From assembly GCA_001599295.1 (NCBI GenBank), contig BCGN01000001.1, positions 1,674,001-1,738,000 of the forward strand: 64,000 nt of DNA. The letters are read 5' to 3'. The notes under the pieces were generated by a model that did not search any database, was not told the origin of the DNA, and saw only the letters and a list, made by a program, of their open reading frames with translations. Positions 31,946-44,422 of this stretch are shown here, one piece after another (positions within the stretch are counted from its first letter, which is position 1; each line of letters starts with the position of its first letter). This stretch comes from Sporopachydermia quercuum. Lineage: Eukaryota; Ascomycota; Sporopachydermiomycetes; Sporopachydermiales; Sporopachydermiaceae. The translations under genes were made by a program, and so were the position numbers.

Positions 31946-33279
31946 ATGTCCGATAACGATGAATTTGATTCTGAGAGTTCGGATGAGAATGATCTAGACC
32001 TTTTTACTTTCTCAAGCATATCCAATGTTTCTGATGCTCGGATAAGAAAGTTAGCAGAAGAAACAAAGTAAGTTAGGATTTTGAGATAGAAACAATTTGA
32101 GTATTCGTTGGGTTGAACAACAGTTCTTAACACATATTTAATAGGGAGGTTGATACTGCAATTGATTCCCCATTAAGCTTAGAAACTCTGAGGCCTAAGA
32201 AAAAAAGAAGAGCCATAAAGAAGGGAACCAGAGGAAAGGTTGCACTGAGAGCGAGCTCAAGAGATGAAAGTGATTACACTAGCGAAGAAGACAGTGATAT
32301 TACAGAAATTGCTGAAGGGGACCTGAACTCAAAGTCAATATCAAATGAACGTTTCACTCGCAGCAAAAGTATAGAGAAAACTGCTAGCGACATTATTTCT
32401 ATACCTTCGGATGATGCAATATTTGATGACGAGAATGTGGCAATAGAAAGTGAAGCTTCCCGAAAGAATGAAATTAGGCGACGTGTCTCTGCTATAGTAA
32501 AACAAAAAGTCTATGAAACCACAAATCGGAATGTACCTGTTGTAATGCCGCATGTTGCAGATCAAGAGGATGAACATAAGGGAGAATTTGGAGATGAACA
32601 TAAAATAAATGTTACTGTTGAATGCCGCATTCCTGGACCGAAGAACGTATCGTTAACAGGAAAGTATACATTAGGAAGTCATGATAAAGTAGAAAAGTTA
32701 TACTCATTATGGGTAAATCAGTTTTCACCAGTAATATCACAATTTCCCGGCTATTATCATAAACTGTTTGGGAGAGAAAAACTAGTATTTCGCTATCGCA
32801 CAGCTAGAGTTTTCAACTCAACTACTCTCAAAAGTGTTTTAGGGGATAATTTTGAATTCACTGACAATGTGGTATTTGAGATTCTCACTGATAAGCAGTA
32901 TCAATTACAAGAATGGGAAGCTAGACAGGCGGAAAATCAACTTCTTGCTAATGATGGTGGTGATATATATGATAGAAACCTTTATCTCGAATCAGATAAT
33001 GATGAAGAAACAAAAGACGCACAAATTAAAATAAATAACAACGAAGATCAAGATTACTTCCCTGTGAAACTAAAAGATAAAGCCAACAATACATTAATAG
33101 TACATGTAGCTGGATCGACAAAATTGATGAAACTGGCTGAGCATTACCGGTCTCAAAAGAATGTCCCTGGTGATCAAACTGTGAATCTATTATTTGACGA
33201 TGAAGTACTTGATTTAAATGAAACTGTACAAACCACTGAATTGGAAGAAGGATTTATTATTGATGTTGTCGTCAAATAG
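31946..33279 (+). CDS. ESC2: SUMO-like domain protein (Esc2/RENi family)
   Basis: Two exons, 31946-32067 and 32145-33279, joined in phase 2 (donor GTAAGT, acceptor TTTAATAG), giving 418 residues (S. cerevisiae Esc2 456). The N-terminal half is acidic and Ser-rich, then basic (RPKKKRR). The C-terminal half has two SUMO-like folds, roughly residues 205-310 and 345-418; the last ends in LDLNETVQTTELEEGFIIDVVVK-type sequence, as in the RENi (Rad60-Esc2-Nip45) family. In S. cerevisiae Esc2 supports silencing, sister cohesion and repair of stalled replication forks through Ubc9 binding. The ATG at 31946 was chosen because it precedes an acidic MSDNDEFDSESS start and the exon phases match. Moderately sure of the name, surer of the domains. 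Confidence 0.8.
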
Positions 33280-40356: not shown

Positions 40357-43300
40357 CTATTTCTTAAACACCTTTTTCATAACACCATGATCTTTTAGCA
40401 ATCCTTCAAAACCAGAATTACTTTTCGTCTTTTTTCTGGAATTTTGTTTAAGGATTTTCTCTGCCTTCTTCATGGTTAAAACATTTCCATTTCTTTTAAT
40501 GTTACCATTAGCGGATTCTTCTTCCAGCTCAGAGTCAGAATCGGAGTCAGAATCAGAGTCAGAGTCAGAACCAGAACCAGAATCAGAGCCAGAACCAGAG
40601 TCGGAATCAGAATCAGTTTCTGACTCCGAGTCTTCATCAGTAATAACATTCTCCCGGCTTGAAGTTTTCCTCAGGTCGAGCTTTTTCACATTAACCAATT
40701 CTTTTAGACCTTCTCGAACATCAAGCTCTCTATTAACCAACGATGATAAACTCTTCAATCCTTTCATAATTCCTGCTTTGTTTGTTGTGGGATTAGAACT
40801 ACTGGCTTTAGTGTTCTGCTCAGATTTAGCATCAAATATGGTCACATTTCTGGCCACATTTTTGGAGTTAAGATTATCTCCCAAACCACCAGCTGAGCCA
40901 CTGGCTGATTCGGGAGCTTCTTCTTTTGGGGTACTATTCCTTCTCAATCTGGGGACAAAACTTGGTGACAAAGCTTCTATGGCGCTCTGACTACCACTAC
41001 TCTTGCTGCTAGTATTCGTTCTAGTAGTCTGTATTGGTGGCGGTCTTACTAAATGGGGGCTTCGGAGATCAGGTGCCTCTGGGGTTGGTGTTTTCTCTCT
41101 GGATTTAAAAATTGTGGTAGGTTCTTGCATCGATATACTAACGGACGTTGCAAGCCTCGGGACCTCTGTATCGGAATCCGAGTCATCGTCATCGTCGTCA
41201 TCCTCTTCCGAATCTTCATCTGAATCATCATCCTCCGAGACGCCTTCCGAAGCTTGAGCTTGAGCTGATACTGAAGTGAAATTTGGTTTAGCACTGCTGG
41301 GTTGAGTAAATGTTTTACCATTTGTTGCATTTAAGGTTTCTATAGGCTTAGTTGGCGACACAACATCCGTTTTGGTAGGAAGGGGAGTCTCAACCACACT
41401 TTTGTCATTTGGGGCTTCAGATTTTGCTTCAGTTTCGCCAAGCTTAACAATGTCCTCAGACTTGGCTTTCGTTTCCACCTTAGCCTCCATTTGGGACTTA
41501 CTTCTCTTCGTTTCCTCTTTAGGCTTTTCTTCTAGTTTACCTTTGGCGACTGCGCCACTTGTTGTCCTCGTCGTTGGATTAGCCTCAAGGTTCTTGGAAG
41601 TTGTTCCAACCATAGTGCTCTCTGTGGCTGCTGCTGGTGCGTCTGTTGTTGTCGGCTTAGGATTTTTAGCCCTAACACGAATAGCATTATTAACTGGTGG
41701 TTTAGATTTTTCGTTTGCCTCATTGTTAGCCTTGGATTCAACTGCCTTTTCAGTAGTAGCTTCGACTTTTTTGGTGTCTTCTGATATACCTTCATTATCA
41801 TCATCATCATCATCGTCATCATCACTAATTGTGGTTTTACTTAGAACCCTTTCATTATCAGTTGCCCTGGTAGCCTTTTTTGATGGAGGTCTGGCAGCAG
41901 CAGCAGTTTTGTCCTCAGACAAAGTAACTGTTTTATCCACAGTGGAAATAGAGGTCCCAGATATCTCTTTAGGAACAGTTGACTTCACAGTGTTTCTTGC
42001 GCTATTGTTCTGTGGAGCTCTTGGCAGTGGCTTTGTATCAGCACCGTCACTTAGCTCAGACACATCTTTATCTTCTATGTCAGCTTTAGCAGTTCTCTTG
42101 TCTTTCTCAACTTTTTCACTAATTTCTAGCTTCTGCTTTTGCTTCAGCCATTCCTCTTTTGTCAACATTTCTTTATTCAATGTTGCAATATTGCAATTGT
42201 TCACTTTGGGCGTAGATGCTGCTATCATTGCAAGCTCAGAAACACCATTTTCNCTTGTTGGAATATCAATTGTTTCCAAAGTAGTGTTTCCAACAGAGGT
42301 NGAATCACCTGGTGATATAGGAGTTTCCTTTGGAGTGGCACTACTATTCGTAGTAAGACTAGTACCAGCTGTAGCATCTATGGCAGGCGTAAGTGGAAGT
42401 GTAGCTTTAGTATTAGCTTTAGTATTATTATCAGTAGTTTTAGCATCACTTGGGGCAATTTTATGAACTGTTAAGTTATCATATGGATGTTCCATTTGTT
42501 CCTTCACTTTATCCAATGCCTTCTGAGCAGCTTTTCTAGTAGAGAATCTTCTGTTAGAAGTTTCTCCATGTACTTCACCTTCAGTAATTGCCCTTTCTTC
42601 AGTTTTTGCTTCAGTTTTTGCTCCACTTTTAACAGCAGTTGCCCTAGATCTAACAGGCTTCTTCACAGCTGCTTCTTGTTCTTTTGAATCAACCTTCTTA
42701 CGAATACTCTTGCTAGTTGAGGGAACAGATTCTTCACATTTGATGCCTAATCTTAAACATCTTGCACACGACGGAAGCGCTCTATCACACTTTTTTCTTA
42801 CTTGCCTACAACCCATACAGGCTAAGAGTCGGCAAGATGATGACTTGTTAGAAGTATCTACTTCTCTGTCATGTAATTCTGAATCATCTGTCTTTAGTAC
42901 ATCATCAGATGTTTTTTTAATAGTTTCGATGGATTCTGTCGGAGGCCTTGATAAGGATTTCAATTTCAATTTCCCTGAACCTTCTGTTTTATTTGCATTA
43001 TTCGATACCGCTTCAGCTTTATCTAATTTCGTTGCTGATGCTCTTTTCTTAGTAGCTTTAGCATCATCAGTATTTTTAACAGCTTCAGCATTTCCTAGTT
43101 TCTCATTTATCGTAGCCTTTTTTTTATATTGTCTTGGCTTTGATTGAATCCTTACTTTTTTACTACTAGAAGATGATTTGTTCTCGATCTCATCAGGTTC
43201 CAAAATCATTTCTTTGCTCATATTACTTGGACTCAATAAATCTTCATGAGTGCTAACGTCGATATTTCTAATGGGAGAGGGAGCCAAAAGCAGAGGTGAC

Positions 43301-44422
43301 TTCTGGGGATCTACATTCATAGCTGAGTCATCACTAGGAGGAGGAGCTAAAGATAAATTGCTTTCCTCCTCATCTTCTTCATCTTCATCGCTTTCTTCCG
43401 ATGCGTGCTCCTCTTCCTGGTCCTTCTGCCTATCTATGTACTCTTTTCTTGAACCCCTACCAGAATTCGTGCCATCTTCCTGATTAATCATATGAGAATT
43501 ATCATTAGCATCATTAGCATGCATTAAAGTCTGTACAGAAGTTCTTACAGCTCTTGGTGATTCACTAAGTCTAGTATAGTTAAACTCTATGCTATCATTA
43601 TCGTTTTCAAAATCTGTATCAAAGCCCAAAAAGCTATCTTTCTTCCGACGTTTTCCTCTACTGACTGCATGCATAATTGCATTAGTATTTCCNCTGGTAT
43701 CTGCATCCGATCGAGGAACTTCCGAACTTGGCTTCCGTTTGCTCACCATAAGTCGAGCCGTTGCTTTATATCGAGGAACATCTAATAGCTCATCGTTCTT
43801 AGCAAGCTGTGAATACTCGTCGTGATCTATAGGAGGATTCAATAATACTCTTACTATATTACAATCATCGAAAACATCTTCAGCAATATAATCAGGGTCT
43901 AAGTCGCAACCATTAACGTCTTGTAATCTGTTTATATCCAGAGGTCTATAATTGGTCAGTATTTAATCAATAAATCAATAAAAAAGAAAAAGCTCTCATG
44001 TAGAAAACATAAGAGTAAATTAAGAGTAGCGTTTGTCTTTAACTCAACAAAATATTTACTTACCTTTCATCAGGATATAGCTTAACAAATCTGGTAGCGA
44101 TCTCTTCGCAAATTTGTAATAAATTATACCCTTTATGCGTCAAATGCAAAAATTTCTTTAATTCCACGTTCTGATAATTGGAAATTGGTGATCCCGTTAC
44201 CAGTGGACTAGATGCTGCGTAGCCGATTGATGTCATACGAGCCTGGGTTATTGATGGAGGTGTATTGTACATTCCCGTAAGTGAGTGCCGCCCCCTGCCG
44301 GAAGTATTTCGCATTCTGACATTGCTTTGAGGGTATATCTGACTGTTACTATCTTCTCCATATGTCGCTTGGGTATTTATATGTTTTGTCCAAGGGATCA
44401 GAACTACTTGAAGTTTCAACAT
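40357..44422 (-). CDS. NET1: NET1/TOF2-type nucleolar protein with a Zn2Cys6 motif
   Basis: Two exons, 44422-44064 and 43945-40357, joined in phase 2 across a GTAAGT...TATAG intron, giving 1315 residues (S. cerevisiae Net1 1189). The N-terminus shows the Net1/Tof2 signature: MLKLQVVLIPW, VELKKFLHLTHKGYNLLQIC, RFVKLYPDER, then RLQDVNGCDLDPDYIAEDVF and NIVRVLL after the splice. In S. cerevisiae Net1 holds Cdc14 in the nucleolus, silences rDNA and stimulates Pol I. The rest is disordered, with acidic runs and an SD/SG repeat tract near the end. At residues 496-523 there is a complete CX2CX6CX6CX2CX6C zinc cluster flanked by basic residues, a module that I do not associate with S. cerevisiae Net1. 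The frame from 43842 alone would miss the diagnostic N-terminus. Confidence 0.86.

What the first reader, a model, noticed from the sequence alone, without database searches (positions are those of the whole stretch)
42736..42819. Complete Gal4-type zinc cluster inside a NET1/TOF2 homolog
Residues 496-523 of the spliced protein read CX2CX6CX6CX2CX6C with basic residues between the second and third cysteines, exactly the Zn2Cys6 DNA-binding pattern, followed by more Lys/Arg. The N-terminus is unmistakably Net1-like after splicing. I know of no zinc cluster in S. cerevisiae Net1 or Tof2, so this lineage may have a nucleolar Cdc14-anchor that also binds DNA directly, for instance in rDNA.
Basis: partly seen in the sequence, partly recalled or inferred. 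Interest (0 to 1): 0.75.

Follow-up and report, generated by a model that had tools for sequence, protein, structure and literature searches.

The report
Zinc-cluster domain inside yeast Net1
A yeast's nucleolar anchor protein Net1 carries, in its middle, an intact Gal4-type DNA-binding motif that the Net1 of baker's yeast and Candida albicans does not seem to have, so this anchor may touch DNA itself instead of relying on adaptor proteins.

Summary
The minus-strand gene at 44422-40357 (one 118-base intron) encodes 1315 residues with the Net1/Tof2/Dnt1 N-terminal domain (PF10407, E 4e-26) and, at residues 496-523, a textbook Zn2Cys6 cluster (PF00172, E 6.5e-7, above the curated cut-off). Exon 2 alone, one open frame, holds half of PF10407 and the whole cluster, so both lie on one polypeptide. 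It is the only PF10407 gene found in its genome. The cluster is intact in sequence, has no close copy among 60 other clusters compared, sits unusually far inside the protein, and no fungal TF middle domain was found. The C. albicans Net1 gene name is absent from the indexed text of a published list of 70 zinc-cluster proteins. I read it as a domain gain in Net1 that most likely gives the anchor a direct DNA contact. DNA binding, rDNA targeting and phylogenetic spread were not testable: no fungal relative was reachable, no rDNA was found in the assembly, and structure predictions were uninformative. New variant of a known kind; moderate interest.

The parts
44064..44422 (-). Exon 1 of the NET1/TOF2-family gene (residues 1-119 and part of 120)
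   Evidence: PF10407 begins at residue 89
43946..44063 (-). 118-base intron: donor GTAAGT, branch TACTGAC at 43961, acceptor ...TATAG
   Evidence: PF10407 is continuous across the junction
40357..43945 (-). Exon 2 (rest of residue 120 to 1315, stop codon included)
43837..44158 (-). Cytokin_check_N (PF10407), Cdc14 phosphatase-binding protein N-terminus, residues 89-156, interrupted by the intron
   Evidence: 4e-26, 91.2 bits; window coordinates computed by hand
42736..42819 (-). Zn2Cys6 zinc cluster, C496-C523, CX2CX6CX6CX2CX6C
42718..42822 (-). Extent of the Zn_clus (PF00172) profile match, residues 495-529
40510..40632 (-). C-terminal Ser/Asp/Glu-rich acidic tract (about residues 1225-1265) followed by a basic C-terminal tail
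   Evidence: read by eye from the translation; coordinates by hand

Best explanation
This is the NET1/TOF2-family gene (the only one found) of a budding yeast that most likely reads CTG as Leu, with a Zn2Cys6 DNA-binding domain gained in the low-complexity middle of the protein. SHOWN (by sequence): the Cdc14-binding-protein N-terminal domain and an intact zinc-cluster motif on one polypeptide; Cdc14-type and Sir2-family genes in the same genome. INFERRED: the N-terminus holds Cdc14 as in Net1, the acidic Ser/Asp C-terminus acts like Net1's Pol I-stimulating tail, and the zinc cluster, helped by the Lys/Arg-rich stretch behind it, binds a CGG-type half-site directly. The most likely place is the rDNA spacer or promoter, adding to or replacing the adaptor-dependent tethering (Fob1, UAF) of S. 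cerevisiae Net1. My rough estimates: architecture real 0.97; cluster binds zinc and DNA 0.65; main target rDNA 0.4.
For: PF10407 4e-26 and Zn_clus 6.5e-7 in the spliced protein; Zn_clus 5.8e-7 and half of PF10407 (7.4e-11) in exon 2 alone. The best solved relatives of the 90-residue cluster region are DNA-binding domains: Ppr1 3.9e-6, Lac9 4.9e-5, Gal4 0.0082. Loop residues are normal for this genome: the C2-C3 loop RQVRKK has a basic residue at position 4, as do 60 of 60 clusters compared (Arg in 11); there is a Pro in the C3-C4 loop as in 59 of 60; loop lengths are the commonest class (22 of 60). One PF10407 gene, one DSPn match, a domain I recall as typical of Cdc14, and 7 SIR2-family matches in 6 open frames. 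In S. cerevisiae Net1, RFB association needs Fob1, promoter association needs the C-terminal region and UAF, and secondary-structure prediction gave the authors no evidence of a DNA-binding domain in that region (PMC6415870, passages). Net1 sits on the rDNA spacer in Clavispora lusitaniae (PMC3814328, section 8), so rDNA is the expected home of a Net1.
Against: No direct evidence of DNA binding. Residue 3 of the basic loop is Val, seen in 1 of 60 clusters of this genome. No fungal TF middle domain, and by eye no evident dimerisation helix follows the cluster. AlphaFold without an alignment gave poor to middling models (mean pLDDT 56.1 and 72.4), and Foldseek found 0 matches at E up to 0.001, the only zinc-cluster protein listed being Put3 at E 8.7. 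The N-terminal 203 residues have no match among solved structures at E up to 1, so Cdc14 binding rests on the Pfam family alone. No rDNA was found in the assembly (5.8S model 0, exact 18S pattern 0), so target sites could not be examined. No orthologue from a related yeast was available, so selection on the cysteines is untested.
Confidence: 0.45

Rival explanations
1. The architecture is ordinary: many yeasts outside the Saccharomyces and Candida groups have a zinc cluster in their Net1, it may be ancestral and lost in S. cerevisiae and C. albicans, and protein databases may already show it under the name of a Zn2Cys6 transcription factor. (This concerns spread and novelty and can be true together with the mechanism above.)
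For: No fungal relative could be reached here, so the distribution is unknown. The cluster has no close copy in the genome, as expected if it is old.
Against: The C. albicans Net1 gene name is not in the indexed text of the 70-member zinc-cluster list. In the one S. cerevisiae Net1 paper looked at, 'zinc' occurs 0 times, though its Figure 1 marks two Pfam motifs in Net1 that the passages I saw do not name. A search for Net1 + Tof2 + zinc cluster found 0 papers.
Confidence: 0.35
2. The cluster binds DNA, but at Pol II promoters or centromere- or telomere-like sites, so the protein doubles as a conventional regulator or silencer that carries Sir2 and Cdc14 away from rDNA.
For: Nearly all characterised Zn2Cys6 proteins are Pol II regulators (recalled). 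Cep3, a kinetochore protein, is among the weaker PDB relatives, E 0.2.
Against: No fungal TF middle domain. It is the only PF10407 gene found in the genome, so it probably keeps the nucleolar role.
Confidence: 0.2
3. The cluster folds but serves as a zinc-stabilised protein-protein or dimerisation module, or is a decaying passenger, and does not contact DNA.
For: It is flanked by low-complexity sequence (by eye). It has Val at a position that is Arg, Lys or His in 44 of 60 clusters. It lies deep inside the protein: in 18 of 20 genome loci fetched with long flanks the cluster starts within 180 codons of the start of its open frame, against 381 codons here by the same measure.
Against: All six cysteines, the spacing, the loop proline and the other basic residues are intact; a passenger would be expected to lose them.
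Confidence: 0.25
4. Artefact: a chimeric gene model or assembly error joins two genes.
For: Computed gene model without RNA data; three N in the coding sequence.
Against: Exon 2 alone is one open frame with half of PF10407 and the whole cluster; GC3 of residues 480-540 is 0.295 against 0.299 for the gene.
Confidence: 0.02

Closest known systems
Net1/Cfi1 and Tof2 of S. cerevisiae; Net1 of C. albicans (orf19.267) and C. lusitaniae (CLUG_02406)
   Same: PF10407 N-terminal domain (that the named proteins define this family is recalled), long low-complexity middle, and an acidic Ser/Asp C-terminal tract that resembles the Pol I-stimulating C-terminal region described for ScNet1 (PMC6415870, passages)
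   Different: An intact zinc cluster at residues 496-523; ScNet1 reaches the RFB through Fob1 and the 35S promoter through its C-terminal region and UAF
Zn2Cys6 (Gal4-type) zinc-cluster DNA-binding domains: Ppr1, Lac9, Gal4
   Same: CX2CX6CX6CX2CX6C spacing, basic C2-C3 loop, proline in the C3-C4 loop; PDB sequence matches to Ppr1, Lac9, Gal4
   Different: Placed in mid-protein of a Net1-type protein, with no fungal-specific TF middle domain found
Cep3 (CBF3 kinetochore complex)
   Same: A known Zn2Cys6 protein outside ordinary transcription control (recalled); weak PDB match E 0.2
   Different: Different protein with a kinetochore role (recalled)

Membership tests
Net1/Tof2/Dnt1 family (PF10407) | Cytokin_check_N domain near the N-terminus | tested here: met
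   Residues 89-156, 4e-26, 91.2 bits against a 22.6 cut-off
Net1/Tof2/Dnt1 family (PF10407) | Acidic Ser/Asp-rich C-terminal region as in Net1 | tested here: inconclusive
   Acidic S/D/E tract at about residues 1225-1265 by eye; low complexity, similarity to ScNet1 not computed
Net1/Tof2/Dnt1 family (PF10407) | Binds and holds Cdc14 in the nucleolus; binds Sir2 | not testable with these tools
   A DSPn (Cdc14-type) gene and SIR2-family genes are present; binding needs an experiment
Zn2Cys6 zinc-cluster domain (PF00172) | Six cysteines in CX2CX6CX5-16CX2CX6-8C | tested here: met
Zn2Cys6 zinc-cluster domain (PF00172) | Basic C2-C3 loop and proline in the C3-C4 loop | tested here: met
   RQVRKK and RALPS pattern against 60 clusters of the same genome; position 3 is Val, 1 of 60
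Zn2Cys6 zinc-cluster domain (PF00172) | Two-helix fold around two zinc ions | tested here: inconclusive
   Single-sequence AlphaFold, mean pLDDT 72.4, one helix of 9 and one of 3 residues; 0 PDB matches at E up to 0.001
Zn2Cys6 transcription factors (whole-protein class) | Fungal-specific TF middle homology domain | tested here: not met
   None at E up to 1 in the full protein or in the 445 residues after the cluster. It is therefore not filed as an ordinary zinc-cluster TF
Zn2Cys6 transcription factors (whole-protein class) | Sequence-specific DNA binding | not testable with these tools
   Needs EMSA, ChIP or similar

The most novel reading that the evidence does not exclude
In this lineage the nucleolar Cdc14/Sir2 anchor has become a sequence-specific rDNA-binding protein by capturing a Gal4-type zinc cluster. 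RENT would then be tethered to rDNA directly, with no need of a Fob1-like adaptor, and Cdc14 release would be coupled to occupancy of a defined DNA site.
Probability: 0.25. Interest if true: 0.7.

Novelty: new variant of a known kind. Interest (0 to 1): 0.45.

Why it matters
How Net1-type anchors find rDNA in yeasts other than S. cerevisiae is, as far as I know (recalled), not settled: Fob1 and UAF do it in S. cerevisiae (PMC6415870, passages), while Net1 still sits on the rDNA spacer in C. lusitaniae (PMC3814328). A Net1 with its own DNA-binding domain would make this directly testable by mutating six cysteines. It would also be an example of a regulatory DNA-binding domain being added to a cell-cycle and nucleolar scaffold. 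Practically, automatic annotation could misname the gene as an ordinary zinc-cluster transcription factor.

Tried and rejected
Looking for fungal relatives: a viral-contig scan gave one locus, L081, whose frames look by eye like a T4-like phage (DNA polymerase, RecA-like, helicase) and whose 26-residue, 50% match around CDLDPDYI I take as chance. A genome-contig scan gave 37 pattern matches and 0 relatives. Both used the 69-residue PF10407 stretch and find close relatives only. Metagenome scans are capped at 0. One yeast accession tried is not in the annotated collections.

Looking for a donor of the domain: of the 69 other Zn_clus places listed for the genome (a lower bound), all 69 were fetched; 60 gave the cysteine pattern in my script and 9 did not (L077, L085, L090, L091, L094, L100, L104, L105, L107) and were dropped. 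The best partner is L045, 16 of 31 identical. The query's best-partner score ranks ninth from the bottom of 61, so there is no recent duplicate. A search of the genome with residues 470-620 gave 22 matches at E up to 1: itself and 21 others, all at listed Zn_clus places (best 1.3e-5, 42% identity).

Structure: two AlphaFold runs without alignment, mean pLDDT 56.1 and 72.4; Foldseek against PDB had 0 of 12 matches at E up to 0.001. Treated as uninformative. pdb_via and the viral library were not run.

rDNA target sites: 5S gave 3 scattered loci, 5.8S 0, exact 18S pattern 0 (recalled pattern, no positive control), and the 18S model failed twice on the machine. No rDNA array could be examined; I cannot say that none is there.

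Species: not identified. A genome tRNA search (63 matches) meant for the CTG tRNA was not followed up; the window has 0 tRNAs by ARAGORN and 0 Rfam matches.

Papers: Net1+Tof2+zinc cluster 0; Zn2Cys6+rDNA+nucleolus+yeast 1, unrelated by title; Fob1+Net1+evolution+Saccharomycotina 0. Listings (3 papers; 17; 3) were seen; of these only PMC6415870 and PMC4789652 were opened, for passages. For Maicas 2005 (PMC2447501) only the abstract and outline could be seen, the held text having abstract and references only; its table was reached only through search counts (70 of 'orf19', 0 of 'orf19.267'). That screen also required a predicted nuclear localisation signal, so the absence is suggestive, not proof.

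Full report
WHAT IS THERE. The minus strand carries a two-exon gene: exon 1 44422-44064, intron 44063-43946 (118 bases; GTAAGT donor, TACTGAC branch at 43961), exon 2 43945-40357, protein 1315 residues. Pfam gives PF10407 (Cdc14 phosphatase-binding protein N-terminus) at residues 89-156, 4e-26, and PF00172 (Zn2Cys6) at 495-529, 6.5e-7, 29.8 bits against a cut-off of 21; the only other listing up to E 1 is Serglycin at E 0.012, 16 bits, below its cut-off of 30. Six cysteines in this register by chance, with 11 in the protein, has an expectation of about 8e-11.

ONE POLYPEPTIDE. PF10407 spans the splice junction: 91.2 bits spliced, 39.0 and 48.2 for the two unspliced pieces. Without assuming any splice, exon 2 alone has PF10407 positions 35-69 (42.3 bits, above the cut-off) and the full zinc cluster in one open frame. 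Of the four donor types scanned, exon 2 has one instance, at 41501, after the cluster, so no intron with those donors removes the cluster. GC3 of residues 480-540 matches that of the gene (0.295 against 0.299).

GENOME CONTEXT. The window is C1:1674001-1738000 of a 16.4 Mb, 12-contig assembly. Both CTG codons of the PP2A B56 gene fall on residues that are leucine in the aligned human subunit, so CTG is most likely read as Leu and this is probably not a CUG-Ser yeast. That it is a budding yeast is my inference from gene content and intron signals; I could not name the species. There is one PF10407 gene (2 matches, its two exons), one DSPn match, taken as Cdc14, and 7 SIR2-family matches in 6 open frames: the parts of a RENT-like complex. 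The genome has at least 70 Zn_clus matches.

QUALITY OF THE CLUSTER. I compared it with 60 of the other 69 listed clusters (9 dropped because my pattern missed them). The C2-C3 loop RQVRKK keeps a basic residue at position 4 (K 42, R 11, H 7 of 60); position 3 is Val, seen in 1 of 60. The C3-C4 loop has the proline found in 59 of 60. The two loop lengths (6, 6) are the commonest class, 22 of 60. The nearest paralogue has 16 of 31 identities, and the query's best-partner score is ninth lowest of 61, so it is not a recent copy. Among the 20 loci fetched with long flanks, the cluster starts within 180 codons of the start of its open frame in 18 (exceptions 295 and 553). By the same measure it starts at codon 381 of the exon 2 frame here, residue 496 of the spliced protein, so its place is unusual; introns were not modelled for the 20. 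The closest solved structures by sequence are Ppr1 (3.9e-6), Lac9 (4.9e-5) and Gal4 (0.0082), among 15 matches at E up to 1. No fungal TF middle domain was found. Structure prediction was uninformative. The N-terminal 203 residues match no solved structure at E up to 1.

HOW IT PROBABLY WORKS. In S. cerevisiae, Net1 needs Fob1 for the replication fork barrier site and its C-terminal region and UAF for the 35S promoter; the authors report that secondary-structure prediction gave no evidence of a DNA-binding domain in that region (PMC6415870, passages seen). C. lusitaniae Net1, found by mass spectrometry with Hst1, lies on the rDNA spacer by ChIP (PMC3814328, section 8 read); it aligns with ScNet1 only over a small segment. 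The simplest reading here is that the N-terminus still binds Cdc14, the acidic C-terminal tract still serves Pol I, and the added zinc cluster with its Lys/Arg-rich follow-up gives a direct, sequence-preferring grip on DNA, most likely in rDNA. Only the domain content is shown; zinc binding, DNA binding and target are inferred.

IS IT IN OTHER NET1 PROTEINS? C. albicans Net1 was assigned to orf19.267 by BLAST (PMC4789652, passage; also listed as NET1 in PMC2739428, passage; counted among genes of unknown function in PMC6403458, passage). A published screen of 6047 C. albicans ORFs for CX2CX6CX5-16CX2CX6-8C plus a nuclear localisation signal found 70 proteins (PMC2447501, abstract). The indexed text of that paper contains 'orf19' 70 times and 'orf19.267' 0 times, so C. 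albicans Net1 was probably not among them. For S. cerevisiae I rely on recall and on the one paper above, whose main text has no 'zinc' and whose figure marks two Pfam motifs that the passages I saw do not name. No other yeast Net1 could be examined, so 'lineage-specific' is a reasonable inference, not a result.

VERDICT. Real, correctly described, and an unusual domain combination; new variant of a known kind. Interest is moderate because the functional claim and the phylogenetic spread are open, and because a database survey that I could not run might show the pair to be common.

Noticed in passing
window 1-64000: 53 N bases, three of them in this coding sequence; those seen in the gene are single and look like ambiguous or heterozygous sites in the assembly.
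   Followed up: no
G000 C4:861484, C2:1786362, C2:1903950: Three scattered 5S rRNA matches of falling score (90, 69.5, 54.5 bits) and no 5.8S or 18S found: the rDNA array may be missing from the assembly, and some 5S-like genes are dispersed.
   Followed up: partly
window 41450-42466 +: A 338-residue antisense open frame opposite the low-complexity middle of the gene; probably a mirror of biased codon use, not a gene.
   Followed up: no
L045 (C4:1010667) and L058 (C10:461187): Two other zinc clusters lie far from the start of their open frames (codon 295 of 1167 and codon 553 of 623), another hint of unusual architectures in this genome.
   Followed up: no
window 32545-33276 +: Protein with a Rad60/Esc2-type SUMO-like domain (PF11976, 7.7e-18), about 7 kb from the near end of the NET1-type gene.
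   Followed up: no
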